Source: Bacteroidales bacterium
Lineage (GTDB): Bacteria; Bacteroidota; Bacteroidia; Bacteroidales; F082
Assembly (NCBI GenBank): GCA_017549805.1
Contig: JAFYNJ010000016.1
Span: 1 to 64,000, forward strand
DNA: 64,000 nucleotides
Reading direction: 5' to 3'
Below are positions 1,955 through 48,425 of the stretch, piece after piece. The notes under the pieces were generated by a model. That model searched no databases. It was not told where the DNA came from and saw nothing but the letters and a program-made list of their open reading frames with translations. Every line of letters begins with the position of its first letter. Position 1 is the first letter of the stretch. Made by a program: the position numbers and the translations under genes.

Positions 1955-2006
1955 GTTAGAAGTTGGTAGTTAGGAGTTAGGAGTTTTCAGTCCTCCGTTT
2001 TCCGTT
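1955..2006. repeat. Heptamer array, words GTTAGRA and AACGGAR
   Basis: Units GTTAGAA, GTTGGTA, GTTAGGA, GTTAGGA and a decayed GTTTTCA run from 1955 to 1989. Two units of a second word, CTCCGTT and TTCCGTT (AACGGAR on the other strand), follow at 1993-2006. The array lies between the likely clpC promoter and the clpC start, so it should be transcribed in the clpC leader. Confidence 0.8.
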
Positions 2007-2016
2007 AAAACTCATG

Positions 2017-2024
2017 CAAAGTTA
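2017..2024 (-). promoter_or_regulatory. -7 box for clpC
   Basis: On the minus strand these bases read TAACTTTG, matching the Bacteroidota -7 consensus TAnnTTTG. The clpC start is about 70 bases downstream. I see no clear -33 TTTG at the right distance. Confidence 0.55.
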
Positions 2025-2117
2025 ATAACAAAAATCGCTCCTTGCTTGTTTTTTGGGCCAAATTGACAAAAATTCATGAAATTTCATTTTTTAAACCCTT
2101 CTTAAAGGTATTTTTTG

Positions 2118-2125
2118 TAAATTTG
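2118..2125 (+). promoter_or_regulatory. -7 box for gyrA
   Basis: TAAATTTG matches TAnnTTTG and lies about 60 bases before the gyrA ATG, giving a leader of roughly 50 bases. No convincing -33 element is visible. Confidence 0.55.
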
Positions 2126-2184
2126 CACCTGCTAATAAAATAGGCCTTAAAATAGAATTTTGAATTAAGAAGCAAGTAGTAAAA

Positions 2185-4767
2185 ATGGAAGAGAATAACA
2201 ATCCGAATGAAGAAATGCAATCTGGTGAAAAGATCATTAAGGTGAATCTTGAAAACCAGATGAAATCGGCTTACATCGACTATTCGATGTCGGTCATCAT
2301 CTCGCGTGCCTTGCCGGATGTGAGGGACGGATTGAAGCCGGTGCACCGTCGTGTGCTGTACGGCATGCTGGGTTTGGGAGTGACTTCCCACAGCGGTTAC
2401 AAGAAATCGGCGAGAATCGTCGGTGAGGTGCTCGGTAAGTACCACCCGCACGGCGACTCCTCAGTATATGACGCCATGGTGCGTATGGCCCAAAGCTGGT
2501 CGCTGCGCTATCCCTTGGTGGACGGTCAGGGCAACTTCGGCTCTGTTGACGGCGACAGCCCGGCTGCCATGCGTTACACCGAAGCACGTCTGAAGAAGAT
2601 TGCAGAGGAGATGCTCGACGACCTCGACAAGGATACCGTCGATTTCCAGAACAATTTCGACGACTCGTTACAAGAGCCCACCGTGCTGCCTACGCAGATC
2701 CCCGCCTTGCTGGTCAACGGCTCCAACGGCATTGCCGTGGGTATGGCCACCAACATGGCACCGCACAACCTCAGCGAATGCGTTGACGGCATCATCGCCT
2801 ATATCGACAATAACGACATCACGGTGCAGGAACTGATGGAATACATCAAGGCACCCGATTTCCCGACCGCCGGCGTGATTTACGGCTACGAAGGCGTACG
2901 CGAGGCGTTTGAGACGGGTAGGGGACGCATCGTGGTTCGCGGCGAGGCTACCATCGAGGAACACAATGGCCACGAGCGCATCATCGCCACCTCCATCCCT
3001 TATCAGGTCAACAAGGCCGACATGATCAAGAAGACTGCCGACCTGGTCAACGACAAGAAACTCGACGGCATCGCCGACATCCGCGATGAGTCAGACCGCA
3101 AGGGCATCCGCATCGTATATGAACTGAAGCGCGACGCCAATGCCGAGGTGGTGCTGAACAAGCTGTATCAGATGACCGCCTTGCAGAGCTCGTTCAATGT
3201 GAACAACGTGGCGCTGGTCAACGGCCGTCCCTATACGCTGAACCTGAAAGACCTGATCAAGCATTTCGTCGACCACCGCCATCAGGTGGTGATCCGCCGT
3301 ACCCAGTTCGACCTCAAGAAGGCTGAGGAACGCGCCCATATCCTGGAAGGTCTGGCCCGCGCCATCGACATCGTCGATGAGATCATCGCCACCATCCGTG
3401 CCTGCAAGGGCGGCTCTGCCGAAGCCAAACAGGCCATCATGGAGAAGTTCGGTTTCGACGATCCGCAGGCTTCCGCCATCGTGGCTTACCGTTTGGGTCA
3501 GTTGGCCGGTCTCGAAATCAAGAAGATCATGGATGAATTGGAGGATCTTGAGGAAAAAATCCGCCATTTCCACGAAGTTCTACAAAATGTGGACATGCAG
3601 TTCCAGATCATCAAGGACGAACTCACTGAAATCAAAAACAAATATGGCGACGAGCGCCGTACCCAAATTGTTCCTGCTGCGGGTGAATTCCGCATCGAGG
3701 ACATGATTGCAGACGACACCGTGGTGGTCACCATCTCGCATCTCGGCTATGTGAAGCGTACCCCGTTGCGCGAATACCGTCGCCAAAGCAGGGGAGGCAA
3801 GGGCTCCAAGGGCTCTTCGACCCGCGAAACAGATTTCATTGAGCAAGTGTTCACCTGCACCAACCACAATTACCTGCTGTTCTTCACTGAGCAAGGCAAG
3901 TGCTACTGGTTGCGCGCCTTCGAGATTCCCGAGGAAGGCAAGAACAGCAAGGGTAGGGCCATCCAAAACCTATTGAACCTCGAAAAGGACAACAAGGTGA
4001 TTACCGTACTGAATGTGAGGGAACTGAAAGACGAGGACTTCATCAACAACCATTACGTGATCCTGTGCACCAAGAAGGGCATCATCAAGAAGACCACCTT
4101 GGAGGCCTATTCGCGTCCGCGCAAGGCTGGCATCAACGCCATCAACATTCGTGAGGGCGATGAACTGTTGACGGCCAACATGACCAGTGGCGAGGACGAG
4201 GTGCTGATGGCATTGCGTTCCGGCAAGGCCGTTCGTTTCAACGAAAATACCGTGCGTCCGATGGGCCGTAACGCCTCGGGTGTGAAGGGTATCACCCTGG
4301 CTTCGGAAAGCGATGAGGTGATCGGCATGATCTGTATCCACAAGCCCGAACAGACCGTGTTGGTGGTCTCAGAAAAGGGCTTCGGCAAGCGCAGCGGCAT
4401 CGAGGATTACCGCATCACCAACCGTGGCGGCAAGGGTGTTAAGACCTTGAACATCACGGAAAAGACGGGTGACCTGATTGCCATCAAGGACGTGACGGAC
4501 GAGGACGATCTCATCATCATCAACAAGTCGGGCATCCTGATCCGTATCGGTGCCGACACCTTGAGGGTCATGGGTCGTGCCACCCAGGGCGTGAAGCTCA
4601 TCGACCTGAGGGGCAACGACGAGATTGCCGCTGTCACCAAGGTGAAGAGGGAAGAGGAGGACGAAGAAGAAGCCGAGGTCCAATACGACGAAGAGGGCAA
4701 CCCGATTCCTGTGGAACCCCAAGAGCCACAAGAGACTGCAGAAGCCCCTGAAAATCCAGAAGAATGA
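2185..4767 (+). CDS. gyrA: DNA gyrase subunit A
   Basis: Breaks and rejoins DNA as the A subunit of gyrase. The winged-helix/tower region opens with [19 protein letters not shown]; the catalytic tyrosine is Tyr131 in MRYTEARL. The quinolone-resistance region reads [10 protein letters not shown], keeping the serine (Ser92) and aspartate (Asp96) equivalent to E. coli Ser83 and Asp87, so no common resistance substitution is seen. A GyrA-box-like SRGGKGS near residue 536 and the repeated beta-pinwheel blades mark gyrase rather than ParC. The C-terminal tail is strongly acidic. Length 860 aa is normal for the family. The ATG follows the promoter at 2118. Confidence 0.96.
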
Positions 4768-4783
4768 TTTTGGAATAGGTTTT

Positions 4784-4818
4784 GATGAAAGATAAAAGAT
4801 AAGAGATAAAAGATAAAA
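4784..4818. repeat. Heptamer array, word GATAARA
   Basis: Five units, GATGAAA, GATAAAA, GATAAGA, GATAAAA, GATAAAA, lie between the gyrA stop and the next start. The purine-rich strand is the sense strand of gyrA. No facing inverted array is present here. Confidence 0.8.
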
Positions 4819-4845
4819 GTTGTATAACTAATAAACTGAAAGAAA

Positions 4846-6009: not shown

Positions 6010-6014
6010 GATTA

Positions 6015-6057
6015 GGTGAAAGGTGAGAGGTGAAAAATTTAAAAGTAACCTTTCACC
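6015..6057. repeat. Heptamer hairpin, word GGTGARA
   Basis: Three sense units (GGTGAAA, GGTGAGA, GGTGAAA; 6015-6035) face an inverted copy (TTTCACC at 6051-6057, followed by decayed TTTCAAT and TTTCAAC). Bases 6014-6024 pair perfectly with 6048-6058 (11 bp). It directly follows the TPR gene and could act as a terminator. Confidence 0.75.
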
Positions 6058-6190
6058 TTTCAATTTTCAACTATCAATTTAACATAATATTGATTATATT
6101 TGAAAAGGGATAACCAAAAGGCAGTGAGCGTTTTGTGAAAAAGATTGGAAGAATCTTCAACAAAGTGAACATTTTCGAGGATTTGAGACT

Positions 6191-6198
6191 TATCTTTG
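6191..6198 (+). promoter_or_regulatory. -7 box that sets the start of the DUF3127 gene
   Basis: TATCTTTG is a perfect -7 box. Transcription would begin near 6204, so the upstream in-frame ATG at 6196 cannot be used and the ATG at 6226 is the start. Confidence 0.65.
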
Positions 6199-6225
6199 CA
6201 TCTGAATCTTATAAAAACATCGTAT

Positions 6226-6624
6226 ATGGAAATCACAGGAAAAGTCGTGAGACTTGGCGGTCTCACCGAAGGAACAAGCGCCAAAGGCCCATGGCGCAAA
6301 CAAGATCTCATCATTGAAACGGACGAACAGTATCCAAAGACCGTATGCCTGACCTGCTGGACGAACCAGATCAACGAAATCCAAAGCATGGTGCCCGGAC
6401 AACTCATCAAGGCACAAATCGACATCTCCTCCAGGGAATTCAACGGCAAATGGTACACGGATGTGCGCGTGTGGCGCTTCGATCCTGTTACAACAGCCGC
6501 TCCTGCTGCTGCACAGCAGCCTGCACCACAAGCCATTCACCAAACGCCTCCAGCGGTCCCTACAGGCGGACCTGAGGAGTTCTTCGGCACGGATTCCAAC
6601 AACGGAGACGATCTGCCGTTTTAA
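6226..6624 (+). CDS. DUF3127 protein with SSB-like acidic C-terminal tip
   Basis: A 132-residue protein whose first ~85 residues match DUF3127, a Bacteroidota family of unknown function (MEITGKVVRLG, WRKQDLIIETDEQYPK, CLTCWTNQINEI). A low-complexity Ala/Pro/Gln linker (about 88-115) leads to an acidic end, NNGDDLPF. Folded domain, disordered linker and DDxPF tip is the layout of single-stranded DNA-binding protein, whose tip (DDIPF in E. coli) recruits repair enzymes. A DNA-maintenance role is therefore inferred, not shown. Start 6226 is used because an in-frame ATG at 6196 overlaps the promoter. The stop codon abuts a heptamer hairpin. Confidence 0.75.
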   Translation: MEITGKVVRLGGLTEGTSAKGPWRKQDLIIETDEQYPKTVCLTCWTNQINEIQSMVPGQLIKAQIDISSREFNGKWYTDVRVWRFDPVTTAAPAAAQQPAPQAIHQTPPAVPTGGPEEFFGTDSNNGDDLPF

Positions 6625-6697
6625 ACGGAGAACGGAAAACGGAAAACGGAGAACGGAAAGTTAAGTTACTAAAGTTCTCCGTTTTCCGTTCTCCGTT
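6624..6697. repeat. Facing heptamer arrays, word ACGGARA, between convergent genes
   Basis: Five units on the plus strand (AACGGAG, AACGGAA, AACGGAA, AACGGAG, AACGGAA; 6624-6658) face three inverted units (6677-6697). Bases 6624-6643 match 6678-6697 as a 20-bp inverted repeat. The left arm starts inside the DUF3127 stop codon; the right arm encodes the last residues of the convergent kinase. Probably a two-way terminator. Confidence 0.8.
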
Positions 6698-7748
6698 TTA
6701 CACTTTCAAACAGTTTCCACTGCGCTCTTGTGCGCACCATGTTGTGCTCGGGATACTGAATCTTGTAATAGGTATCTCCATTAATATAATCGGCGAAAAA
6801 CCTTACCGCCTGCATGTATGGGAACAATGTGGCGGCGTATGGCAGATGCTCACGCTCCACAGGCGTCAGGAAGGATTTGGTGCCTTCCAGATAGCCCTTT
6901 AGGAAGGCATCGTAAATCTCTATGTTGAAATGGATGTTGCCCAAGTCGGGATCGTCCTCAGCGCCTGTGTTGGCTGCCGACCGTAGGAAATCGCCGAAAT
7001 CGGAAAAGACGAAGCTCGGCATGATGGTATCCAAGTCGATGATACACAATACTTTACCATATTTGTCGAAGAGCATGTTGTTGACCTTGGTGTCGCAATG
7101 GCAGATGCGTTTGGGCAACTTGCCTTCGCGGTACAAACGCTCGCCAAGACACATCTCGTAGGCTAAGTCCTTGATTTTCTTGACATAATCCAGGACTTCA
7201 CGGTCTTTCATCCTTCCCACGGCGTCAGCGGCAATGGCATCGTCAAGCTGCTTCAGCCTGAACTCGATATTGTGGAAATTGGGAATGATCTCCCCTATCG
7301 GCTCCTTCACATCGGCCAGCAACGACTCGAAATCACCGAACGAAAGACCGGCATCGTAGGCGGATTGGGGCGTGACGGCATCCTGGGTCACGCTGTCGGC
7401 GATGAAGTCCATCACACGCCAGTACTCCTCGCCTACTTTCACGTAGGTCTTGCCCGTGTCGGCCTTCAAGAAATGCAGCACGCGGCGGTCGATGTCGGGC
7501 ATTCTGGCAGCCTCATATTTGCGACGGATATGGTTAGTCACAATCTCGATGTTGCGCTGCAGCATGTCCACGTCGGTAAACACCTTGTCGTTGATGTGCT
7601 GTAGGACGTATTTAGGTTGCTCCTGCCCTGCTATCATGATCTTATAGGTGTCGTTGATCAACCCATTGCCCAAGGGCTGGATAGTTGCTATTTGAGCCGC
7701 ATCGACAAAATGGGCGGCGATGGCAAAAAGTGCATTTCCTTCGTTCAT
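6669..7748 (-). CDS. NahK-like N-acetylhexosamine 1-kinase (APH fold)
   Basis: Aminoglycoside-phosphotransferase-fold kinase. The catalytic loop CHCDTKVNNMLFD (about residues 216-228) and metal-binding IIDLDTI (about 235) resemble NahK, which phosphorylates GlcNAc or GalNAc at C1; homoserine-kinase-like proteins share the fold. It is divergent from a GH109 alpha-N-acetylgalactosaminidase with overlapping promoters, so GalNAc is the likely substrate (inference). The ATG at 7748 (MNEGNALFAI) is preferred over a TTG at 7754. The last nine residues, KRRTENGEL, are encoded by the adjacent heptamer array and are probably not part of the fold. Confidence 0.75.
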   Translation of the reverse strand: MNEGNALFAIAAHFVDAAQIATIQPLGNGLINDTYKIMIAGQEQPKYVLQHINDKVFTDVDMLQRNIEIVTNHIRRKYEAARMPDIDRRVLHFLKADTGKTYVKVGEEYWRVMDFIADSVTQDAVTPQSAYDAGLSFGDFESLLADVKEPIGEIIPNFHNIEFRLKQLDDAIAADAVGRMKDREVLDYVKKIKDLAYEMCLGERLYREGKLPKRICHCDTKVNNMLFDKYGKVLCIIDLDTIMPSFVFSDFGDFLRSAANTGAEDDPDLGNIHFNIEIYDAFLKGYLEGTKSFLTPVEREHLPYAATLFPYMQAVRFFADYINGDTYYKIQYPEHNMVRTRAQWKLFESVKRRTENGEL

Positions 7749-7760
7749 GGTCAAGGTATT

Positions 7761-7819: not shown

Positions 7820-9232
7820 ATGAAAACGAAACTTTTAGCCACTCTATTCGTCGTGGCTTGCATCTTGTCGGCTTGCACGCCCAAGCCCCAGGAGGATCGT
7901 CACGGCAACTATGTCATCAAGAACAACACCATCGTGTTCGACGAGCCTCAGCGTCAGGAAGGACAAAAGAGCGTCCTGCAATTTACGGTGGATCCCATTG
8001 AGAATGTCCGCATCGGATTCATTGGACTGGGCATGCGCGGACCGGATGCCGTGGATCGCATGACCTATATCGACGGCGTGACGGTGGTCGCACTTTGCGA
8101 CATAGAGCCCGACCGTGTCGAGAAAGTCCAGACCGACATCCTCGAAGCTAAGGGCCTGCCTCGTGCGGCTGCCTACACAGGCCGTGAAGGCTGGAGGGAA
8201 CTCGTCGAGCGCGACGACATCGACCTCGTCTATATCTGCACCAACTGGCAAACCCATGTGATGATGGCCACCTACGCCATGCAGTGCGGGAAGCATGTGG
8301 CGCTGGAAGTGCCTGCCGCCACCACGTTGGAGGAATGCTGGCAACTCGTCGATGTGGCCGAACAGACGCAGCGTCACTGCATGATGCTCGAGAACTGCTG
8401 CTACGACTTCTTCGAGTTGACGGCGTTGAACATGGCACAGCAAGGCATGTTCGGCGAACTCGTCCACGGCGAAGGCGCTTACATCCACAACCTGGAGCCT
8501 TATTGGCGCGACTATTACGAGAACTGGCGCCTGGAGTTCAACCAGAGCCATGCAGGCGACGTGTATCCCACCCATGGCCTCGGACCCCTCTGCCAGGCTT
8601 TCAACATCCACCGCGGCGACCGCATGAAGACCTTGGTTTCCATGAGTACGCCTTCCTATAACGGCAAGAAGATTGCCAAGGAGCTGATGGGTGTGGACGA
8701 CTTCGCCAACGGCGACATGACCACCACCATGATCCAGACGGAGAAGGGCAAGACCTTGCTTATCGAGCATGACGTCTATACCTATCGTCCTTACAACCGT
8801 CTCTATCAGCTGACGGGTACGGACGGCTTCGCCAACAAGTATCCCATCGAGGGCTTCACGCTCCTCGACGATAAGCTGCCTGCAGGCTTCCTCGCCGAAG
8901 GCCAACACCTGAATCCCCATGGCTTTGTGCCTGCCGAGGTGCGCGACAAGATCCTGAAGGAATACCTCCATCCCATCGCGGTGGAAATCGAGGAAAAAGC
9001 CAAGGAAGTGGGCGGTCACGGCGGCATGGACTTCGTGATGGACTACCGCTTGATCTATTGCCTGCAGAACGGCTTGCCGCTCGACCAAGACGTGTATGAC
9101 GCCGCTGAATGGTCCTGCTTGGGCGAGCTCACCGCAGCTTCCATCGCCAACGGTGGCATGCCGGTGGCCATGCCCGACTTCACCCGTGGCGATTGGGACA
9201 AGGTTGATGGCTATATACATGCTGTTAGATAA
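7820..9232 (+). CDS. GH109 family alpha-N-acetylgalactosaminidase, lipoprotein
   Basis: Exported Gfo/Idh/MocA-fold glycosidase; GH109 enzymes use bound NAD to cleave terminal alpha-GalNAc, as on mucin or blood-group A glycans. From the ATG at 7820 there is a lipoprotein signal with lipobox LSAC, so the enzyme should be anchored to a membrane. The Rossmann dinucleotide site reads GFIGLGMRGPDAVDRM (about residues 63-78), then VVALCDIEPDR, LVYICTNWQTH and VALEVPAATT. The remaining ~300 residues form the substrate domain, with MDFVMDYRLI near the C-terminus. An in-frame TTG at 7790 is rejected because it overlaps the -7 box. The stop codon lies inside a heptamer unit. Confidence 0.85.
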   Translation: MKTKLLATLFVVACILSACTPKPQEDRHGNYVIKNNTIVFDEPQRQEGQKSVLQFTVDPIENVRIGFIGLGMRGPDAVDRMTYIDGVTVVALCDIEPDRVEKVQTDILEAKGLPRAAAYTGREGWRELVERDDIDLVYICTNWQTHVMMATYAMQCGKHVALEVPAATTLEECWQLVDVAEQTQRHCMMLENCCYDFFELTALNMAQQGMFGELVHGEGAYIHNLEPYWRDYYENWRLEFNQSHAGDVYPTHGLGPLCQAFNIHRGDRMKTLVSMSTPSYNGKKIAKELMGVDDFANGDMTTTMIQTEKGKTLLIEHDVYTYRPYNRLYQLTGTDGFANKYPIEGFTLLDDKLPAGFLAEGQHLNPHGFVPAEVRDKILKEYLHPIAVEIEEKAKEVGGHGGMDFVMDYRLIYCLQNGLPLDQDVYDAAEWSCLGELTAASIANGGMPVAMPDFTRGDWDKVDGYIHAVR

Positions 9233-9308
9233 AAGATAAGAGATAAAAGTTAGTGATAGTCAAAGCTTTTATCTCTTATCTTTTATCTCTTATCTCTTAT
9301 CTCTTATC
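9228..9308. repeat. Facing heptamer arrays, word GATAARA, between convergent genes
   Basis: Three sense units (9228-9248) face six inverted units (TTTTATC/TCTTATC, 9267-9308) across an 18-base loop. The GH109 stop (9230-9232) and the stop and last codons of the convergent glycosyltransferase (from 9297) are both built from repeat units. The hairpin is long enough to terminate transcription both ways. Confidence 0.85.
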
Positions 9309-11267
9309 TCCTCCCGAGATCGATTTGAAGAAGATCTCCGCGTCCTTCCAGACGGTGTAGTCACGGGCGTAGAGCAGATTCAACTGGTTATGGAACTCGG
9401 TATCGTTCGCGGTGCCGAGTTTTTCAATGGGTGTCGCTGGCGTATAGATGCCACGGCGGATCTTGGGCAGCTTCTGGGTCTCATCGCCAGTGTTGCAGTA
9501 GCCGACCCATGTGCGACGGCCTATCAGCACCAAAATGGCGTTCTTCAGGAAGCGGACGGGTTGCTTCACCACCAAAGCCAACGGCAACCAGAACAGGATG
9601 CTGAATCCGGCGAGGATGAAGTCGAGCAGCCTTTTGTTGCGGCGGTTGGCCACGGTGTCGATGGCTTTGATGTCAATGGTGTAAAGGTCTCCCCTCGTGT
9701 TGATGCTGTTGCTGCCGATGATGGAGAGGCTGTCCTCAGGCGCAATCTTGTAATCCACGTTGGAGGCATGCCACTCCACCATCTTGTCGATGATGACCTG
9801 GTGTGGCACGTCCTTTGAGCAGAAGATGACTTCTGTGATCTTGTAGATCGTGATGATGTCGGGCACTTGGTTGATGCGTCCGATGAATCCCTCGGGGGTC
9901 TCCCCTTTCATATCCGAGCTGACCAGTCCGATGAAATCGGGCTTGATGGAGGTGCTTTGGATCAGCGATTCAACACGCTGTGCCTCTTCGGGACTGCCAA
10001 TCAGAATGAAGCGCTTCTTGGCGTTGCGTTTCGATAGGAAGGAGTCCTTCCCCATCCAGATGCCGATGAGTCGGGTGAGGCTCATCTCGATGGCGAGCCA
10101 AAGCGTGCCGAAGAGGATCAAGGCACGGGAGAAGCGGAGCGACTCAGGCAGCAGGGCGTAGAGCATCAGCACGAAGACGCTGCCGATGGCGACGCCGAAC
10201 ACGCCTTTGCCGATGCTGTAGGGCTTGTCGTAGCCTCCAGAGAAATAGGTGAAGAGTAGCCATATCAGGATGTAAGCCGGCAAGACCAAGGCGAAGAGTG
10301 TGGTGGGATAGCTTCCCACGCCTTCATAGACGGTCATCTTGCCCCAGAAATAGCTGATGGCGGCCAAGCCTCCATAGCCCAACACCGCATCGAGGAACGG
10401 GATGGCGATCTTGTGGAAGAATTGGCTGATCAGCGCCAAAAAGGCCTTGAAATAGATGGCGATGTTGATGAAGAAGGAGAACCAGAAGGCGCGTTTTTGT
10501 CCGAAGTGCTTCTTGGCGAAGATCTCCATGGCCTTGTAGAACACCAGCACATAGTTGACGCTGGTCTTCTTGGTGCTCTCTCCCTTGTAGTGGATGATGC
10601 GGGTCTCGGGAAAATAATAGTTCTTGTAGCCGCCTTGGGTGATGCGATACGAGAGGTCGATGTCCTCGCCATACATGAAGAAGGTCTCGTCCAGCAGTCC
10701 TACCTTGTCCAAGGTCTCGCGACGCATCATCATGAAGGCACCGGCCAGGATCTCCACCTCGTTGGTCTCGTCGTTGGAGAGATGCCCCATGTAGTAATGG
10801 GAGAAGCGCTTGGAGTGTGGAAACAGCTTGGCGAGGCCGAACATCTTGTAGAAGGCGGCGGCCGGGGTGGGCAGTCCGCGCTTGGACTCGGGCAGGAAGT
10901 TGCCTTTGCCGTCAACCATCTTCACGCCAAGGCCGCCGGCATCGGGATGGGCATCCATGAAGGCGATGCACTTCGAGAAGGTGTCGTCCTCCACCACGGT
11001 ATCAGGATTCAACAGCAAAACGTATTCACCCGTGGAGACCTTGATGGCTTGGTTGTTGGCACGGCTGAAGCCCACGTTTTCCTTGTTGGCGATGACCTTC
11101 ACCTCGGGAAACTTCTCGGCCAGCATCTTCAACGAGCCGTCCACCGAGTTGTTGTCAACCACAAACACCTCTCCGTCGATGCCTTGCATGGCCCTTCGGA
11201 CAGAATAGAGGCACTGTTCCAAAAACAGCTCCACATTGTAGTTGACGATGACGACGGATAGCTTCAT
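9297..11267 (-). CDS. Family 2 glycosyltransferase fused to a membrane/Rossmann module
   Basis: Inner-membrane enzyme likely making surface polysaccharide. Residues 1-260 are a GT2 domain: VVIVNYN at the N-terminus, VVDNNS, and LLNPDT as the metal-binding site near 90, with GEDIDLSYR near 210. After several hydrophobic spans (about 265-405) comes a Rossmann-like segment (KKRFILIGSPEEAQRVESL, near 420) as in polyprenyl-phosphate sugar transferases. A helix RRNKRLLDFILAGFSIL follows, but I do not see the catalytic signature of that transferase family. The ATG at 11267 (MKLSVVIVNYN) is preferred over a TTG at 11285. The final GDKR and stop come from the heptamer array. Divergent from a flippase. 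Confidence 0.75.
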   Translation of the reverse strand: MKLSVVIVNYNVELFLEQCLYSVRRAMQGIDGEVFVVDNNSVDGSLKMLAEKFPEVKVIANKENVGFSRANNQAIKVSTGEYVLLLNPDTVVEDDTFSKCIAFMDAHPDAGGLGVKMVDGKGNFLPESKRGLPTPAAAFYKMFGLAKLFPHSKRFSHYYMGHLSNDETNEVEILAGAFMMMRRETLDKVGLLDETFFMYGEDIDLSYRITQGGYKNYYFPETRIIHYKGESTKKTSVNYVLVFYKAMEIFAKKHFGQKRAFWFSFFINIAIYFKAFLALISQFFHKIAIPFLDAVLGYGGLAAISYFWGKMTVYEGVGSYPTTLFALVLPAYILIWLLFTYFSGGYDKPYSIGKGVFGVAIGSVFVLMLYALLPESLRFSRALILFGTLWLAIEMSLTRLIGIWMGKDSFLSKRNAKKRFILIGSPEEAQRVESLIQSTSIKPDFIGLVSSDMKGETPEGFIGRINQVPDIITIYKITEVIFCSKDVPHQVIIDKMVEWHASNVDYKIAPEDSLSIIGSNSINTRGDLYTIDIKAIDTVANRRNKRLLDFILAGFSILFWLPLALVVKQPVRFLKNAILVLIGRRTWVGYCNTGDETQKLPKIRRGIYTPATPIEKLGTANDTEFHNQLNLLYARDYTVWKDAEIFFKSISGGDKR

Positions 11268-18833: not shown

Positions 18834-18922
18834 ACGTCATTGCGAGCGAAGCGAAGCAATCCAACCTGACCCGAAATAGTTCTGGTTGGATTGCTTCGTC
18901 GTTTCACTCCTCGCAATGACGT
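18834..18922. repeat. Palindromic REP-like element
   Basis: An 89-base imperfect palindrome: the left arm begins ACGTCATTGCGAG and ends GAAGCAATCCAACC, and the right arm carries their complements, with about six extra bases and a 17-base loop. The core ATTGCGAGCGAAGCGAAGCAATC belongs to a palindrome I recognise as widespread in bacterial genomes. It fills the space between two convergent genes and could end transcription of both. Confidence 0.75.
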
Positions 18923-19833: not shown

Positions 19834-19835
19834 TC

Positions 19836-19863
19836 TCTAAACTCTAAACTCTCAACTCTAAAC
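19836..19863. repeat. Heptamer array, word GTTKAGA
   Basis: Four units, TCTAAAC, TCTAAAC, TCTCAAC, TCTAAAC on the plus strand (GTTTAGA/GTTGAGA on the minus). It is squeezed between the stop codon of the DUF349 gene (sharing its last base) and the aroC start, which begins two bases beyond. Confidence 0.8.
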
Positions 19864-21818
19864 TAATCATTGACGATCTTCAGCTTCGCTTCCAAAACCT
19901 TCAGATCGTTCTTGGCTTTGTTGATCTTCTTTTCGTACTCGGCCCTCATCAGCTCTGAGTTCTTGCTGTTGGAGAAGAAACCGATGTTGTTTTCGAGGAC
20001 GGCGATCTCGTCGCGGAGCTTCTGGATCTTGTTGGCCAAGTTGGTCTTTTCACGGCGCATCTTGTCGCCCGACTCAGGATCGTCCTTCATGAGTTCCACC
20101 ATCTCCTTGTATTCATTGGTGGAGATCTCGTTCTGGTTGCTTCTCATCTTGTCGAAGAGGGCATCCACGGCCTGGCGGTATTCGCTGTTGATGCTGTCCT
20201 TGACCTTCATCGGCACATGGCCGATTTCGATCCATTGTTTCTGCAGGGCCTTGATGGCTTCCATGTTCTCAGCGCGGTTCGGCTTGAGCTCGAAGTTCTT
20301 GATGGCTTCGATGATGGCTTGCTTGGCGGTGAGGTTGGCAGCCTCTTCTTCTTTCAGTCCTCCGAAATGCTCGGCCTTGCGTCCGAAGAAGGTGTCGCAG
20401 GCGGCTCTGAAACGCTTCCAGATCTTGTCGGCATGGCGCTTCGGAACGGGACCGATGGTCTTCCATTCTTCCTGCATCTTCTTGAACCTTTCGGTGGCCT
20501 TCTTCCATTCGGTGGATTCCTGCAGGGCTTCGGCTTCGATGCAAAGGTTGATCTTGCGTTCAAGGTTCTCAGTCTGCCTGTCTTTCAAGTTGGCGAAGAA
20601 CTCTTTCTTCTTGGCGAAGAAGGTGTCCATCGTACCCTTGAATCGAGCCCAGATCTCTTCGTTTTGTTTCTTGGAGGCAGGACCGACGGTCTTCCAAACC
20701 TTGAAGAGCTCGCTGAGGTCGTTTGATTTCTTCTGCCAGGTGTTGATGCTGGTGTATTCTTCGGCGAGCAGCTCCTCGGCCTTCTCGCAAAGCGCGGTCT
20801 TGGTGGCGAGGTTAGCGTTCTGTTCCTCTTGGATCTTGGAATAGTGCTCGCGACGGATGGCGTTGATCTTGTCGGTAGCCGCCTTGAAGCGCTCCCAGAT
20901 CTCGTCTTTCTTGTCCTGCGGCACAGGACCCACTTCCTTCCACTCCTCATGGAGCTGCTGGAGGGTCTTGAAAGCCTTCGACATGGACTTCTCGTCGAGC
21001 AGTTCCTCGGCCTTCTCGCAGAGCGAGATCTTGGCGTCGAGGTTCTTCTTCATGTCGAGGTCGCGGAGTTCGCGGTTGATGTTGACCTTGTCGAAGAACT
21101 TCTCCACTAAAAAGTGGTAGGTGTTCCAGAGGTTAGCGTTCTCGGTAGCCGGCACCTGGCCGATGGTCTTCCACTTCTCCTGCAGGGCGCGGAAGTCGTC
21201 GTAGGTCTTCTTGAGGGTCTCTTCCGAGGCGATGAGCTGCTTGAGCTCTTCGAGGATGGCCTTCTTCTGTATCAGGTTGTCGCTCTTCTGGGCGTCGATG
21301 AGTTCATTCTGCTTGGCGCGGTTGGCTTTGTAGATGCCGAATGCGGTGTTGAAGCGCTGTTCGGCCTCGTCGGGAACGTGCTGGTAGCTGTCCTTGTCGC
21401 CGCCGCCCTCCAGGAAGGCTTCCATTTCCTTGTCCATGTCTTCCTTGTTGAGCTTCATAAAACGAACGCGAATGGCGGTGACATTGTCCTTCACCTTCAT
21501 GACATCGGGATCTTGGACAATCTCTTCGAGCATGGCGGCCAATTCTTCCTTGGTCTTACCTTCAATGTCAAGTTTTTCAACAGCAGCCTCTTCCTCCTCT
21601 TCTGCCTCTTCCATCTCCTCGTTGGTCACGATTTCAGGAAGGACTTCGTCCTGAGGAACGATCTCCGTGGGCTTCACCTCTTCTTCAACGGTTTCCTCAA
21701 CCAAGGTCTCCACTTTGATCCTCACGCTTCCCGGAAGGATCGAGGACTGGTTCAATTTCACGATTTTCTTTTTCTCATTGCCATCAATGGCCTTAAGCTC
21801 TTTGTTTTCCATTTTCAT
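19863..21818 (-). CDS. DUF349 repeat protein
   Basis: A 651-residue, highly charged, mostly helical cytoplasmic protein. After an acidic segment (about 40-80) come about seven DUF349 repeats of ~70 residues, each with a W-K-x-G-P/V-P core such as EEWKEVGPVPQDKKDEIWERF, EEWKTIGPVPKRHADKIWKRF and QWIEIGHVPMKVKDSI. It ends in a coiled coil (NLANKIQKLRDEIAVLENN). The role of DUF349 is not established; no enzyme motif is seen. The start is ATG 21818 or 21812. A minus-strand promoter lies at 21873-21880. Confidence 0.85.
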   Translation of the reverse strand: MKMENKELKAIDGNEKKKIVKLNQSSILPGSVRIKVETLVEETVEEEVKPTEIVPQDEVLPEIVTNEEMEEAEEEEEAAVEKLDIEGKTKEELAAMLEEIVQDPDVMKVKDNVTAIRVRFMKLNKEDMDKEMEAFLEGGGDKDSYQHVPDEAEQRFNTAFGIYKANRAKQNELIDAQKSDNLIQKKAILEELKQLIASEETLKKTYDDFRALQEKWKTIGQVPATENANLWNTYHFLVEKFFDKVNINRELRDLDMKKNLDAKISLCEKAEELLDEKSMSKAFKTLQQLHEEWKEVGPVPQDKKDEIWERFKAATDKINAIRREHYSKIQEEQNANLATKTALCEKAEELLAEEYTSINTWQKKSNDLSELFKVWKTVGPASKKQNEEIWARFKGTMDTFFAKKKEFFANLKDRQTENLERKINLCIEAEALQESTEWKKATERFKKMQEEWKTIGPVPKRHADKIWKRFRAACDTFFGRKAEHFGGLKEEEAANLTAKQAIIEAIKNFELKPNRAENMEAIKALQKQWIEIGHVPMKVKDSINSEYRQAVDALFDKMRSNQNEISTNEYKEMVELMKDDPESGDKMRREKTNLANKIQKLRDEIAVLENNIGFFSNSKNSELMRAEYEKKINKAKNDLKVLEAKLKIVND

Positions 21819-21958: not shown

Positions 21959-23396
21959 ATGCTTGACTGCGACATTCAAAACACCTTGGCGGGACTTGTC
22001 CGATCGATAGGGATGAACCCTGTTGACATCAAGCCGATCGCCGAATCGGGTTCCGCCAGGAAATACTATAGGATTCTCACCGCCGAAGGCTCCATCATCG
22101 GCACCTATAACGCCAATGTGGAGGAAAACGAGGCTTTCTTTTATCTGACGGAACATTTCGGTCAGTACCACCTCAAGGTGCCCAAGCTGCTGGCGATCAA
22201 CGAGGAGCGGAATTGCTACCTCCAGTCGGACCATGGCGACGAGACCCTTTTCGACCATGTCCAACGCGATCTGAAGTCGGACTCCTATAGCCCAGAAACC
22301 ATCTCGCTCTATAAGAAGACGCTGGAACAGCTGGTGCGTTTCCAACTGGAAGGCCATCTCGGTCTCGACTATTCAAAGGTGTATCCCATGCCCTGTTTCG
22401 ACAAGTCGGCGGTGATGGACGACCTCGACTATTTCAAGTATTATTTCGTGAAGCCGCACGCCGAGATCGTCTTTAACGAAACCCGACTCAAAGCCGAATG
22501 CAACGCCTTTGCCGATTTCATTGGCCAAGCCTTTAGCGAAGCCTTCATGTACCGTGATTTCCAGTCGCGGAACGTCATGGTGGATCATGGTGAGCCCTGC
22601 TTCATCGATTACCAAGGCGGAAGAAAAGGCCCTCTGCAATATGACGTGGTGTCGCTGCTCTACCAAGTGAAGGCGCAATTGCCACCCGACATGCGGAATG
22701 ACTTGCTTGGACATTATAAAAAGGCTTTGTCGGCCTATCTGGATCCCTCTTCGGTGGATTTCGACAAATACTATCCCTATTTCGTTTATCTGAGGCTGCT
22801 TCAGGTGTTAGGTGCCTATGGCTTCCGTGGCCTGATCCAGAAGAAGGCCCACTTCATCGAAAGCATCCCCTACGCCTTGAAGGAACTGAAATCCTGGAAC
22901 GATCAATACCCACTTGAAGCCTATCCCGAACTCCAAAATGTCATCCTCCAAGTCGTCGCCCTCCTCGACCATCGTTACCTTTCACCTCTCACCTCTCACC
23001 TCTCACCTCTTACCGTCACTCTCAACAGCTTCTCTTTCAAAAAGGGTTATCCCGACGATTTCAGCGGCAACGGCGGCGGCTTTGTGTTCGACTGTCGCGC
23101 CTTGCCCAATCCAGGCCGGGAGCCGCAGTTCAAGACCAAGACGGGACGCGACTGGGAAGTGGTGGAATACCTGATGGAGAAACCGCAAACCCATGTCTTT
23201 CTGGACCATGTCAAAGCCATCGTGGGACAAAGCATCGACAACTATTTGGAACGCCATTTCAGCAACCTGATGGTCTCGTTTGGATGCACCGGAGGACAGC
23301 ATCGGTCCGTATTCTTCGCCCAGAGCATCGCCGACTGGATCAAGGCCACCTACCCTACAGTGAACGTGAAAGTGAACCACATAGAACAGCACATCC

Positions 23397-23404
<8 letters not shown>
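21959..23404 (+). CDS. AmgK-like sugar kinase fused to a RapZ C-terminal domain
   Basis: Residues ~1-325 are an APH-fold kinase like AmgK, which makes MurNAc/GlcNAc-1-phosphate: catalytic loop YRDFQSRNVMV and metal site FIDYQGGRKGPLQYDVVSLL. Residues ~358-480 match the RapZ C-terminal domain, including SFSFKKGYPDD, VFDCRALPNPG and the signature GCTGGQHRSV; in enteric bacteria RapZ senses glucosamine-6-phosphate. Between them, five heptamer units (22977-23011) encode a Ser/Pro/Leu/Thr linker in frame. The next gene is MurU-like and overlaps by 8 bases, so the pair fits cell-wall amino-sugar recycling. The ATG at 21959 is preferred over TTG 21953. Confidence 0.85.
22977..23011. repeat. In-frame heptamer array inside amgK-rapZ, word GGTGARA
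   Basis: Five units: ACCTTTC, ACCTCTC, ACCTCTC, ACCTCTC, ACCTCTT (GGTGARA on the other strand), the same word as at 6015, 46139 and 48412. The array lies between the kinase and RapZ domains and is read as a Ser-Pro-Leu-Thr-Ser-His linker. As 7 is not a multiple of 3, a change of one unit would shift the downstream frame. Confidence 0.85.
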
Positions 23405-24168
<764 letters not shown>

Positions 24169-24175
24169 AACCATC

Positions 24176-33078: not shown

Positions 33079-33113
33079 TTCTTACTTCTTACTTTTGAAT
33101 TCTAACTTCTTAA
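33079..33113. repeat. Decayed heptamer array, words TTCTTAC/TTCTAAC
   Basis: Five units TTCTTAC, TTCTTAC, TTTTGAA, TTCTAAC, TTCTTAA (GTAAGAA/GTTAGAA on the other strand), directly after the galK stop and seven bases before the next ATG. Less regular than the other arrays. Confidence 0.6.
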
Positions 33114-43700: not shown

Positions 43701-43991
43701 TCACCTAAAAACGATGTCGGTAAGGACTTCGCGGCCAACAAGATTGTTGAGATTGTCGCGGAGCAACGACTTCGCATAGCCCAACTCGTTGCGCAGGCTG
43801 TCGGAAGTGAGCTTCACAAACAGCACGCCTTCCTTAATATAAAGGTCTTTCGTGTATTGGGCAATGAAGGGACCCACCACCCCGTTCCAGCCGTTGATGA
43901 TCTTGAGCTCGTCAAGATAGCCTGAGCCTTTGTGCTCGGCATAATAGGCCTTGATCAGCTCGCCTACCGTGTTCTGGTTCGGATCATTCAT
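43701..43991 (-). CDS. DUF721 (DciA-like) protein
   Basis: A 96-residue protein with the DUF721 fold, the family that includes the helicase loader DciA: GELIKAYYAEHK, WNGVVGPFIAQYTKDLYI, LFVKLTSDSLRNELGYAKSLL. Overlaps the recF end by 8 bases, a common pairing of replication and repair genes near the origin in many bacteria. A role in loading the replicative helicase is inferred from the family. Confidence 0.82.
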   Translation of the reverse strand: MNDPNQNTVGELIKAYYAEHKGSGYLDELKIINGWNGVVGPFIAQYTKDLYIKEGVLFVKLTSDSLRNELGYAKSLLRDNLNNLVGREVLTDIVFR

Positions 43992-46131: not shown

Positions 46132-46138
46132 AACTTTA

Positions 46139-46166
46139 ACCTTTCACCTTTCACCTCTCACCTCTA
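46139..46166. repeat. Heptamer array, word GGTGARA
   Basis: ACCTTTC, ACCTTTC, ACCTCTC, ACCTCTA between porQ and nusB. On the minus strand the nusB stop TAG (46164-46166) is formed by the first unit. Confidence 0.8.
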
Positions 46167-47123
46167 CACCAATCCTCTCCCCGTCTTCACTAACTTCCCT
46201 TCCGCCTTGAGCTGTTCAGAAAGCTTGTCGAGGATGCCGTTGACGAACCTACGGCTATCGGGCGTGCTATAGTATTTGGACAGTTCGATGTATTCGTTGA
46301 TGGTGACTTTCACGGGGATGTCTTGGAACTGGCAGAACTCCGTCAATGCCATGAAGATGATGATCTTGTCCATCAGGGCGACGCGGTCGTAATCCCAATT
46401 GGAGATGTTGGCCTTCACCAGCTCCTGGTATTCGTCGGCATGCTTCAGGGTGTCCCTGAAAAGCTTGAGCAAGAAGCGCTTGTCGTCGTTGTTGTCTTCA
46501 TTCTCGGTCTTGTAGGCCGTGGGAAGCTTCGTCGAGGCATCGAAATGCTCGTCCAGCTCGTTGATGAACTTCCACAAGAGGAAGAGCCCGAGCTGATAGT
46601 CGCTGTTATAGCCCAGGTTCTTGTCGGAATAATAGTCGAAGAGCACCTCGTCGTCCTCCAGGTGGTTGTCGATGATGTCGAGAATCAGTTTCTTGTCCAA
46701 GGCAAAGCTGCTCTTGCTGCTGGCCATGTATTCCTGGTATTCGGGATATTCGCGAAGACGGTTGTAGAAGCCGCGGATGAAATCCTCGCGGTCGTCCGTC
46801 CAGTTGATCTTGTATTTCTCGGCCAGGCGCATCAGATCCGTATTGTTCTCCAATGCATTGAGCACATGGTTGTTGACAAACTTGCGGTTCGGGTTCAGGT
46901 CCTCTTCCGTCGGGAAATTCTTGTGCAGGTTCTCTTCAATCCTACGTTCGGCAAAGCATTTCACCTCCACCCAGAATGTCAACTGACGGATAAAAAGTCC
47001 ATAAAGGTTGTCAACACTATCGAGAAGACGGCGCTCGGCGGCCGCCATGTCAGTCTCTTCAGCTTGGTGATAGGCATAGATCTGCTGCAACACCTTGACT
47101 CTCAAAAACCTTCTGTTAAGCAT
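46164..47123 (-). CDS. nusB: Transcription antitermination factor NusB
   Basis: Binds BoxA RNA with S10 to allow full rRNA transcription. The Bacteroidota form is long (319 aa here against ~140 in E. coli). It starts MLNRRFLRVKVLQQIYAY and has a long acidic middle (about 60-205); the conserved NusB C-terminal helices include WDYDRVALMDKIIIFMALTE and KVTINEYIELSKYYSTPDSRRFVNGILD (by its parts INEYIELSK and FVNGILD). A minus-strand -7 box TAAATTTG lies at 47158-47165. Confidence 0.92.
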   Translation of the reverse strand: MLNRRFLRVKVLQQIYAYHQAEETDMAAAERRLLDSVDNLYGLFIRQLTFWVEVKCFAERRIEENLHKNFPTEEDLNPNRKFVNNHVLNALENNTDLMRLAEKYKINWTDDREDFIRGFYNRLREYPEYQEYMASSKSSFALDKKLILDIIDNHLEDDEVLFDYYSDKNLGYNSDYQLGLFLLWKFINELDEHFDASTKLPTAYKTENEDNNDDKRFLLKLFRDTLKHADEYQELVKANISNWDYDRVALMDKIIIFMALTEFCQFQDIPVKVTINEYIELSKYYSTPDSRRFVNGILDKLSEQLKAEGKLVKTGRGLV

Positions 47124-47157
47124 AAAACGATGAATCTATTGACTTGTAACTAAACGG

Positions 47158-47165
47158 CAAATTTA
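47158..47165 (-). promoter_or_regulatory. -7 box for nusB
   Basis: Minus-strand TAAATTTG, 34 bases before the nusB ATG. Confidence 0.55.
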
Positions 47166-47208
47166 GGAATTTATTCTTAATGGAAGGCGCTGCATTCAAA
47201 TAAAATGT

Positions 47209-47216
47209 TATCTTTG
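47209..47216 (+). promoter_or_regulatory. -7 box for reverse rubrerythrin
   Basis: TATCTTTG, 57 bases before ATG 47274, leaving a leader of about 50 bases that has no obvious binding site. Confidence 0.5.
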
Positions 47217-47273
47217 CATGATTAAGTTCAATGAAACGAAAACTAACTCGATTTAATAGAAAGGAATCAAAAC

Positions 47274-47819
47274 ATGAAGAAAAAATTCATTTGCCCCATT
47301 TGCGGCTATGTGCACGAAGGCACGGAAGCCCCGGAACGCTGTCCGCAATGCAAACAGATTGTCGAATGGAAGGTTGTTGACGAAAGCGCTGCCTTGAGCT
47401 TTGTGACCGAACATGTGGTCGGCATCGCCAAGGGCACTGGCGAAGACATGATCAAGGACCTCAACGCACACTTCATGGCTGAAGCCACCGAGGTCGGCAT
47501 GTACCTGGCCATGAGCCGCCAGGCTGACCGTGAAGGCTATCCCGAGATTGCAGAGGCTTTCAGGCGCTATGCCTTTGAGGAAGCCGATCACTGCGCCAAG
47601 TTCGCCGAGCTGTTGGGCGATGTGGTGTGGGACACCAAGACCAACCTCTACAAACGCATGATTGCCGAGGCCGGCGCCTGCGAGGACAAGATGCGTATTG
47701 CCCGTGTGGCCAAGGAACGCAACCTCGACGCCATCCACGACACCGTCCACGAGATGGCCAAGGACGAAGCCCGTCACGGCAAAGGCTTTGAAGGACTTTA
47801 TAAGAGATATTTTGATTAA
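47274..47819 (+). CDS. Reverse rubrerythrin (peroxide-reducing)
   Basis: Diiron peroxidase that detoxifies hydrogen peroxide in anaerobes. The rubredoxin-like iron site is at the N-terminus (CPICGY at 7-12 and CPQC at 24-27), the reverse of classic rubrerythrin. The four-helix bundle carries the diiron ligands in AHFMAEATEVGMYL, FEEADHCAKF and MAKDEARHGKGFEG. 181 aa is full length. Followed by ferritin, suggesting a joint iron and oxidative-stress function. Confidence 0.9.
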   Translation: MKKKFICPICGYVHEGTEAPERCPQCKQIVEWKVVDESAALSFVTEHVVGIAKGTGEDMIKDLNAHFMAEATEVGMYLAMSRQADREGYPEIAEAFRRYAFEEADHCAKFAELLGDVVWDTKTNLYKRMIAEAGACEDKMRIARVAKERNLDAIHDTVHEMAKDEARHGKGFEGLYKRYFD

Positions 47820-47828
47820 TAACATGAA

Positions 47829-47877
47829 GACAGAAGTCAGAAGACAGGAGACAGAATTCTGACTTCCGACTTCTGTC
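47829..47877. repeat. Heptamer hairpin, word GACAGRA
   Basis: Four sense units (GACAGAA, GTCAGAA, GACAGGA, GACAGAA) run straight into three inverted units (TTCTGAC, TTCCGAC, TTCTGTC). The first 21 bases match the reverse complement of the last 21 at 18 positions. It sits between reverse rubrerythrin and ferritin. Confidence 0.8.
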
Positions 47878-47894
47878 TCCTAAATTCTTAAAAA

Positions 47895-48410
47895 ATGATT
47901 AGCAAAAAATTAGCAAAAGCCCTCAACGACCAGATCAATGCTGAAATGTGGTCGGCATACCTTTACCTGAGCATGTCGCAAGACCTCTATGCAAAGGGAT
48001 ACAAAGGCATTGCGCATTGGTTTAAAGTACAGTTCCTCGAGGAACAGGCTCACGCAGCCATCATGATCAACTACCTGCATTCACAGGACGAACGGGTGAT
48101 CTTAGCTCCCATCGCCAAGGTCCAGACCACCTGGAAGAGCGTTCTCGCCATTTTCGAGGACACCCTGAAGCATGAGAAGAAGGTGACCGCCATGATCAAC
48201 AACCTCTGCGACATCGCTGACGAGGACAAGGATCGTGCCGCCGGCAACTTCCTCGCCTGGTTTATCGACGAACAGGTGGAAGAAGAAGAGAATGCCCGCG
48301 AACTCGTCAACCATTGCAAGATGATCGGCGACCACATCGGTGGCATGATCATGCTCGACAAGGACCTGGGCGCTCGCGAGTATCACACTCCGGCTCCGTT
48401 GAAAGATTAA
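47895..48410 (+). CDS. ftnA: Ferritin
   Basis: Stores iron in a 24-subunit shell. 171 residues with four-helix ligands INAEMWSAYLYLSMS, FLEEQAHAAIMINY (the E-x2-H pair) and FIDEQVEEEENAREL. No haem-binding Met, so non-haem ferritin. Shares the strand with reverse rubrerythrin, separated by a heptamer hairpin that may lower read-through. Confidence 0.94.
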   Translation: MISKKLAKALNDQINAEMWSAYLYLSMSQDLYAKGYKGIAHWFKVQFLEEQAHAAIMINYLHSQDERVILAPIAKVQTTWKSVLAIFEDTLKHEKKVTAMINNLCDIADEDKDRAAGNFLAWFIDEQVEEEENARELVNHCKMIGDHIGGMIMLDKDLGAREYHTPAPLKD

Positions 48411-48411
48411 A

Positions 48412-48425
48412 GGTGAAAGGTGAAA
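48412..48425. repeat. Two-unit heptamer array, word GGTGARA
   Basis: GGTGAAA twice, directly after the ferritin stop and running into the A-run of the terminator at 48423. Confidence 0.6.

What the first reader, a model, noticed from the sequence alone, without database searches (positions are those of the whole stretch)
1955..48425. A dispersed family of 7-base tandem arrays with changing words
Twelve loci (1955, 4784, 6015, 6624, 9228, 19836, 22977, 24106, 33079, 46139, 47829, 48412) hold 2-9 units of exactly 7 bases. Mostly one word dominates a locus (the array at 1955 mixes two): GATAARA, GGTGARA, ACGGARA, GTTAGRA, GACAGRA or GTTKAGA. Most words share a purine end with A/G at position 6, so the words look like variants of one template nnnnRRA. 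Same period, different words, always at gene ends or in linkers, suggests an active process that builds or converts arrays, not chance. I recognise no named family; heptamer repeats of cyanobacteria are the only analogy I know.
Basis: partly seen in the sequence, partly recalled or inferred. Interest (0 to 1): 0.78.

Follow-up and report, generated by a model that had tools for sequence, protein, structure and literature searches.

The report
Word-swapping heptamer arrays at gene ends
A gut Bacteroidales genome carries more than a hundred short arrays of 7-base repeats, mostly at gene ends, and related species often have arrays at the same spots spelled with different words, which suggests that these spacers are rewritten rather than simply inherited.

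Summary
In detail: the window has 15 seven-base arrays above my cut-off, and period 7 is about ten times commoner than any other period (multiples of 7 aside) in 857 kb of this Bacteroidales genome. Two species with about 95% identical DNA share arrays at 11 of 56 gaps; 7 keep the word or its class and 4 carry a different one. Against more distant relatives sites often coincide, but words match little more than chance. The geometry is strict. The purine-rich strand starts at the gene edge and runs outward, mainly from stop codons; inverted pairs are purine arm then pyrimidine arm (27 to 1); divergent gaps are avoided. A flip control rules out an ORF-calling artefact. This is not a new kind: Rehm et al. 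2015 report the same geometry for GGGAATC heptamers in Xanthomonas and Nostoc. New here are many words, replaced at fixed sites, mostly unable to form G-quadruplexes, so quadruplexes cannot explain the placement. Best explanation: heptamer blocks renewed by copying from other arrays plus slippage, with selection confining them to gene ends. The copying step is inferred; local slippage alone remains a serious rival.

The parts
1954..1985 (+). purine-strand array, word AGTTAGR, in the gap between divergent genes (a clpC-like gene, label recalled from my reading, and gyrA)
4784..4819 (+). single purine array AGATAAR between gyrA (ends 4767) and a TPR gene (starts 4846); holds the 30-base string found at 14 loci of this genome
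6014..6033 (+). purine arm AGGTGAR just after the TPR gene stop (6009)
6048..6077 (-). pyrimidine arm, partner of 6014-6033; hairpin -23.5 kcal/mol, z -5.2
6624..6657 (+). purine arm AACGGAR overlapping the stop codon of gene 6226-6624
6674..6697 (-). pyrimidine arm, same word, at the stop of the convergent gene 6669-7748; hairpin -41 kcal/mol, z -6.9
9227..9246 (+). purine arm AGATAAR overlapping the stop of gene 7820-9232
9269..9310 (-). pyrimidine arm, same word, six copies by TRF, overlapping the stop of gene 9297-11267; hairpin -31.6 kcal/mol, z -7.6
19835..19864 (-). array AGTTTAR/AGTTGAR (purine strand is minus) starting at the stop of gene 19863-21818 and running towards the chorismate synthase gene
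22977..23014 (-). in-frame array ACCTYTC inside ORF 22013-23404, in the stretch between kinase and RapZ C-terminal domains; G033 and G054 carry ACTCCTC-type units there
24105..24171 (-). array AGTTGAG/AGTTTAG (9.6 copies by TRF); holds the C-terminal tail and stop of gene 23397-24155 and ends 4 bases before the next start
33079..33112 (-). weak array TTCTTAC-like, periods 7 and 21, between two plus-strand genes
   Evidence: only; below my cut-off
46134..46165 (-). array AGGTGAR/AGGTTAA between two minus-strand genes
47826..47854 (+). purine arm, AGNNAGA class; pairs with 47857-47878, hairpin -27.4 kcal/mol, z -5.1
48402..48425 (+). purine array AGGTGAA overlapping the stop of the ferritin-like gene, followed by a GC-rich terminator-like hairpin

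Best explanation
These are heptanucleotide long simple-sequence repeats of the kind described in Xanthomonas and Nostoc, here with many words (23 word families among the own arrays, 12 of them with three or more arrays). Shown: they sit mostly at gene ends with the purine strand starting at the gene edge and running outward; they are rare in divergent gaps; array sites often coincide between species while words are replaced; inverted partners in one gap share a word more often than chance; arrays of several words end outward in AGTT or AACT; for the word AGATAAR the same A/G order recurs at many loci. Inferred: array sites are renewed by copying ready-made blocks of about four heptamers from other arrays of the genome (short-homology template switching or gene conversion), with slippage adjusting copy number and fold-back copying carrying a word to the opposite arm. 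Selection removes copies that damage promoters or coding sequence and keeps those that leave a working stop codon. Paired arms may also act as bidirectional terminators.
For: Period 7: 96 segments against 10 or fewer at any other period from 3 to 13 in 857 kb. Polarity: purine strand outward from the nearest gene edge in 45 of 55 informative own arrays (26 of 33 in the first 464 kb, 19 of 22 in 393 kb fetched after the rule was seen); 38 of 48 in relatives, which include orthologous loci; reverse-complementing the arrays in place and recalling genes gives 13 of 63, and 15 of 46 in relatives. Array-free gaps show no purine bias (0.502 after stops, 185 flanks). Order of arrays within 110 bases: 27 RY, 1 YR, 3 YY, 1 RR, own and relatives together. 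Contexts: 4 arrays in 101 divergent gaps, 21 in 52 convergent, 58 in 258 tandem (p 1.7e-6 for the divergent deficit). Word replacement: G033 and G054 (pieces 91-97% identical) both have arrays at 11 of 56 gaps; 6 pass my same-word cut-off, a seventh is of the same AGNNAGA class, 4 differ outright. Own and G022 share 11 of 52 gaps (p 1e-4), same word at 3 of 11; chance match about 0.10. Outer terminus AGTT/AACT in 10 of 19, 7 of 19 and 14 of 44 arrays against 6-7% background. AGATAAR: of 24 loci with four or more exact units, 14 carry the identical 30-base string; of 19 windows with a single G, 14 have it at unit 2 (p 1e-5). Same tally in G054 11 of 17, G033 16 of 28, G022 10 of 20 (tallied by hand, overlapping windows counted).
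Against: Over all word families in 857 kb the order-sharing signal is modest and within the range of the shuffles: 47 locus pairs share an exact non-periodic 24-mer, against a shuffle mean of 32 and maximum of 50, so block copying rests mainly on one word and on the outer terminus. No enzyme was identified: reverse transcriptase (56 of 99 genomes) and SbcD (71 of 99 over cut-off) show no obvious link to array richness, judged by eye. Arms reach 0.9 unit identity in only 5 of 13 own pairs (p 0.007 against chance). The start-edge half of the polarity rule is weak: 7 of 10 own, 7 of 11 relatives. At most G033/G054 sites change is by units or points. No within-species comparison was possible, so no switch was seen happening.
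Confidence: 0.5

Rival explanations
1. Local slippage only. Each array grows where it stands by polymerase slippage with a built-in preference for 7 bases, is lost by deletion, and regrows from another local seed; selection for a working stop codon gives the strand bias at 3' ends.
For: The period-7 preference is a known property of bacterial long repeats (Mrazek 2007 as cited in PMC4679880). Differences between G033 and G054 at 7 of 11 shared sites look like unit gain, loss or point change. Several purine words contain stop codons. Order sharing across all families does not exceed the shuffle range.
Against: Outright word replacement at 4 of 11 shared sites between G033 and G054; identical A/G order at 14 of 24 AGATAAR loci; a defined outer terminus; the same words recur in several species of the genus.
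Confidence: 0.3
2. Selected transcription terminators or mRNA 3'-end structures. Purine arm then pyrimidine arm makes a bidirectional hairpin with a U-rich 3' side, and selection keeps the pairing while words drift.
For: RY order 27 to 1; the four window pairs folded have z of -5.1 to -7.6 with no shuffle as good; at the gap at 6625 both arms carry the same or nearly the same word in each of six genomes while the word differs between them; in G033, G054, G036 and G004 arms flank a classical terminator-like hairpin at the 6010 gap.
Against: Most arrays are single; the one folded (4784) has no structure. A separate canonical terminator is found in 0 of 12 convergent gaps with pairs against 14 of 60 array-free gaps, not significant (p 0.11), and the strict detector missed at least one that I see by eye (C5 gap at 49379). 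A looser test without masking found terminator-like hairpins in 9 of 13 gaps with arrays and 33 of 38 without. Does not explain the period or the shared words.
Confidence: 0.12
3. A REPIN-like mobile element: inverted heptamer pairs copied as single strands by a Y1 (RAYT-type) transposase encoded elsewhere.
For: Block of about 30 bases, dispersed, polar, sometimes in inverted pairs.
Against: Most copies are single; arms need not match; many words. Family features recalled, not tested.
Confidence: 0.05
4. G-quadruplex function or phase variation, as discussed for other heptamer or shorter repeats.
For: Same geometry as the G-rich heptamers of Xanthomonas and Nostoc.
Against: The commonest words here (AGTTGAR, AGGTGAR, AGATAAR, AACGGAR) have no GGG run; the window neighbours that I named are housekeeping genes such as gyrA and a ferritin-like gene.
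Confidence: 0.03

Closest known systems
GGGAATC / GGGGA(C/T)T heptamers of Xanthomonas and Nostoc (Rehm et al. 2015, PMC4692102; passages and sections 13, 14 and 16 read)
   Same: 7-base unit, dispersed, mostly intergenic; G-rich strand close to the ORF on the coding strand downstream and on the non-coding strand upstream; overlap with stop codons; few between divergent genes; inverted pairs; same sites in related species with length and sequence variation
   Different: One word type per genome studied there, able to form G-quadruplexes; here many words, the main ones without G runs, and the word itself is replaced at the same site
TAACTGA direct repeats of Beggiatoaceae, some Cyanobacteria and five Bacteroidetes (MacGregor 2015, PMC4679880; abstract, sections 3 and 10 and passages read)
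   Same: 7-base direct repeats, mostly intergenic, sporadic across phyla, other heptamers mixed in some genomes
   Different: One word dominates in the main genome and related heptamers are rare there; mostly just before start codons; I met no purine-strand rule in what I read. TAACTGA doublets: 0 in 857 kb here; the nearest word is AACTGAA
Short tandemly repeated repetitive (STRR) heptamers of filamentous cyanobacteria (one passage in PMC2670836; Mazel 1990 and Jackman and Mulligan 1995 seen only in its reference list)
   Same: Short tandem repeats able to form hairpins; a Trichormus plasmid carries an array of the AGNNAGA class (L204 10341-10372)
   Different: At the same cut-off 4 arrays in 200 kb of Trichormus plasmid against 96 in 857 kb here; word replacement not checked there
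Long simple-sequence repeats of 5-11 bases (Mrazek 2007, known only as cited)
   Same: Heptanucleotides most abundant
   Different: As cited, it concerns abundance, not geometry or word replacement
REP/REPIN elements (recalled)
   Same: Short, dispersed, polar, inverted pairs
   Different: Units here are not palindromic, not one sequence family, and no transposase was shown

Membership tests
Heptanucleotide long simple-sequence repeats | tandem units of 5-11 bases longer than expected by chance, 7 the commonest | tested here: met
Gene-edge heptamers of the Xanthomonas/Nostoc type | purine/G-rich strand on the coding strand just after the stop | tested here: met
   stop edges 38 of 45 own, 31 of 37 relatives
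Gene-edge heptamers of the Xanthomonas/Nostoc type | purine/G-rich strand on the non-coding strand just before the start | tested here: inconclusive
   start edges 7 of 10 own, 7 of 11 relatives
Gene-edge heptamers of the Xanthomonas/Nostoc type | under-represented between divergent genes | tested here: met
   4 arrays in 101 divergent gaps of 411 gaps; p
Gene-edge heptamers of the Xanthomonas/Nostoc type | G-quadruplex-capable word | tested here: not met
   the four commonest words contain no run of three G; read from the words, no folding test
Gene-edge heptamers of the Xanthomonas/Nostoc type | preference for four units | tested here: inconclusive
   35 of 114 arrays have three full units, 56 four, 8 five, but strict counts for nine words give 37, 17, 17, 4 for two to five units; short arrays with variants are under-detected
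Cyanobacterial STRR | same heptamer words | tested here: inconclusive
   one array of a shared class on a Trichormus plasmid; the published word lists were not available to me
TAACTGA repeats | word TAACTGA in tandem | tested here: not met
   no TAACTGA doublet on either strand in 857 kb
REPIN | palindromic REP pairs with a RAYT transposase in the genome | not tested
Phase-variation repeats | located in or before surface or contingency genes | tested here: inconclusive
   window neighbours include gyrA, chorismate synthase, NusB-family and ferritin-like genes; only window genes were named

The most novel reading that the evidence does not exclude
A cross-phylum, sequence-tolerant copying process plants blocks of about 30 bases (four heptamers) at gene edges with fixed strand polarity and a fixed outer end, and overwrites the resident block with another word from a genome-wide list, copying it to the facing arm when there is one. 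The word does not matter; the period, the polarity and the place do.
Probability: 0.27. Interest if true: 0.85.

Novelty: new variant of a known kind. Interest (0 to 1): 0.6.

Why it matters
Rehm et al. discuss the placement of gene-edge heptamers in terms of G-quadruplexes. Here the same placement, strand rule and inverted pairing occur with main words that have no G run, so something else must set the geometry, at least here. Because words are replaced at fixed sites between species with about 95% identical DNA, the process may be fast enough to catch between strains, which would make the old question of why bacteria favour 7-base repeats directly testable.

Tried and rejected
Stop-codon overwriting: array-adjacent genes do not clearly use TAG more (own 9 of 59 against 68 of 608; relatives 8 of 33 against 37 of 202), so that idea was dropped. 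Terminator substitution: not significant. Reverse transcriptase and SbcD as the driver: no obvious link to array richness, judged by eye. Rfam: no match at gathering score in the window. Generic pattern AGNNRRR x3: its reversed control also picks up arrays (own 301 against 196), so the genus and phylum counts are only a rough guide to richness. Position-specific variation: suggestive (mostly transitions at unit position 7, mostly transversions at 3 and 4), but the register was chosen on the same bases, so I do not lean on it. Background purine bias as the cause of polarity: rejected. ORF-calling artefact: rejected by the flip control. Genes were called by my own codon-usage script, not by a standard caller; 6 of 114 own arrays with near-equal purine content were dropped from the context counts.
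Full report
What is there. The window lies in a 2.73 Mb genome in 33 contigs. The nearest named relatives by GyrA are Bacteroidales MAGs (97%, 95% and 94% identity in the best segment; the first is from sheep reticulum by its title). Tandem Repeats Finder confirms period-7 arrays at all twelve coordinates. My own scan finds 15 segments in the window, adding three inverted partners and one further site, and leaving out the weak one at 33079. Period 7 stands alone: in 857 kb there are 96 segments at period 7, 10 at period 8 and 4 or fewer at each of periods 3-6 and 9-13; a Markov control on 464 kb gave none with 11 or more matches at period 7 against 36 observed. Distribution is patchy: among the 80 loci, the three nearest relatives have 3 to 6 arrays of score 12 or more, while the twelve loci L084-L095 (79-84% GyrA identity) have 0 or 1 each.

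Words. Read on the purine-rich strand, the main words are AGTTGAR, AGGTGAR, AGATAAR, AACGGAR, AGCTGAA, AGTTAGR and the AGNNAGA class; by majority word there are 23 families, 12 with three or more arrays. The same words recur across the genome: AGATAAR doublets give 106 matches against none for the reversed control.

Geometry. With genes called by a codon-usage script, arrays lie mostly in tandem and convergent gaps and rarely in divergent ones: 58 in 258, 21 in 52 and 4 in 101 gaps of 20 bases or more, with 25 of 108 inside called ORFs. The purine strand begins at the nearest gene edge and runs outward in 26 of 33 informative arrays of the first 464 kb, where I saw the rule, and in 19 of 22 of a further 393 kb fetched afterwards. 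Relatives give 38 of 48, though these include orthologous sites. At stop edges it is 38 of 45, at start edges only 7 of 10. When every array is reverse-complemented in place and genes are recalled, the figure becomes 13 of 63 (15 of 46 in relatives), so stop codons inside purine words do not create the rule. Array-free gaps show no purine bias after stops (0.502). Arrays within 110 bases of each other are purine-then-pyrimidine 27 times and the reverse once, with 3 YY and 1 RR (relatives included; 12 and 1 in the own genome). The four window pairs that I folded have z of -5.1 to -7.6, while the single array at 4784 has no fold.

Word replacement. I compared 100 gaps of this genome with up to eleven relatives by anchoring on flanking genes; 26 gaps had an array in at least one genome and were found in three or more. 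The pairwise counts cover ten genomes and only pairs with 20 or more gaps, so G008 and G010 do not appear. Sites often coincide: own and G022 share arrays at 11 of 52 gaps (p 1e-4), own and G033 at 11 of 62 (p 4e-4), own and G054 at 11 of 58, own and G036 at 8 of 26. Not every pair is significant (own and G004 p 0.15, own and G013 p 0.33, own and G035 p 0.08). Words agree little: 3 of 11, 3 of 11, 2 of 11 and 0 of 8, where the chance match is about 0.10. G033 and G054, whose DNA pieces are 91-97% identical, share 11 of 56 gaps; 6 pass the same-word cut-off, one more is of the same AGNNAGA class, and 4 differ outright. At the 24156 gap, with flanks 95 and 94% identical between the two, one has AACTGCT-type units and the other AGGTTAA-type units; at 71205 of stretch C even the strand differs (flank identity between the two was not computed there). 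At the 6625 gap, six genomes carry inverted pairs with three different heptamer words, arms matching at 0.94 to 1.0 in each; G033 and G054 carry an octamer-like inverted pair and G013 and G035 have no array. In this genome as a whole, arms reach 0.9 identity in 5 of 13 pairs (p 0.007).

Hints of block copying. Arrays of words other than AGTT- and AACT- types end outward in AGTT or AACT in 10 of 19, 7 of 19 and 14 of 44 cases (own first set, own second set, relatives), against 6-7% background; the same motif lies within 6 bases of the inner end in 1, 0 and 3. For AGATAAR, 14 of the 24 loci with four or more exact units hold the same 30-base string with the same A/G order; among windows with a single G, 14 of 19 place it at the second unit, and 11 of 17, 16 of 28 and 10 of 20 in G054, G033 and G022 (p 1e-5, 6e-4, 3e-4 and 0.014; tallied by hand, overlapping windows counted). 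The string occurs 16, 11, 10, 4, 1 and 1 times in G033, G054, G022, G035, G036 and G038 and in none of nine other genomes of 16 tried. Over all families, however, order sharing does not leave the range of the shuffles: 47 pairs against a mean of 32 and a maximum of 50 at 24 bases. So block copying is likely for one word and unproven for the rest.

What it probably is. The nearest published thing is the GGGAATC and GGGGA(C/T)T family of Xanthomonas and Nostoc. Rehm et al. 2015 (PMC4692102, sections 13, 14 and 16) report the same strand rule at both gene edges, overlap with stop codons, under-representation between divergent genes, inverted pairs, and same sites with varying length and sequence between two Xanthomonas species. 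They showed quadruplex formation by oligonucleotides but could not identify a role in gene regulation. Here the main words have no G run, so quadruplexes cannot be what places them. MacGregor 2015 (PMC4679880) describes a mainly single-word family and cites Mrazek 2007 for heptamers being the commonest class; its word TAACTGA has no doublet in 857 kb here. A Trichormus plasmid that I read carries an array of the AGNNAGA class (L204). I file the finding as a new variant of this known kind: many words, replaced at fixed sites.

Mechanism. My leading account is renewal by copying blocks from other arrays plus slippage, with selection confining the result to places where promoters, starts and stops survive. 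Local slippage alone is the main rival. Paired arms may also terminate transcription: a separate canonical terminator was found in 0 of 12 convergent gaps with pairs against 14 of 60 array-free gaps, but this is not significant (p 0.11) and the detector is strict. No driver gene was found: reverse transcriptases and SbcD do not obviously track array richness (against the rough counts, compared by eye).

Literature limits. I made eight full-text searches. Nothing in the listings I saw describes many-word heptamer arrays replaced at fixed sites, but three listings were capped (15 of 72, 12 of 94 and 40 of 68 papers), and the search for Bacteroidales with heptamer, tandem repeats and intergenic returned no paper. 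Most subscription papers, probably including the original cyanobacterial ones, are not held.

Noticed in passing
window 18834-18922: Large inverted element with ACGTCATTGCGAG / GAAGCAATCCAACC arms in a convergent gap; similar sequence appears at other gaps of this genome and next to an array in G033.
   Followed up: partly
window 22013-23404: One ORF joins an APH-like kinase domain to a RapZ C-terminal domain; the stretch between them is written in heptamers, with a different word in G033 and G054 and an open frame across it in G033.
   Followed up: partly
G033 and G054, gap orthologous to window 6625-6668: Inverted pair with an 8-base unit (GTTGATCA-like, my reading) in place of the heptamer pair; period 8 is also second to period 7 among short periods in the own genome (10 segments in 857 kb).
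   Followed up: no
G010 gap A 35909 and G022 gap at window 34024: A further word class AATGCGG/AATTCGG forms inverted pairs in some relatives.
   Followed up: no
genomes G248, G352, G217 (outside the order): High counts of the generic heptad pattern, with high reversed controls too (333 and 263, 188 and 156, 210 and 119); may be other purine repeats.
   Followed up: no
L204 10341-10372 and 10723-10750: Trichormus variabilis plasmid C: a purine heptamer array and a pyrimidine one at the two ends of a small gene annotated as four helix bundle protein.
   Followed up: partly
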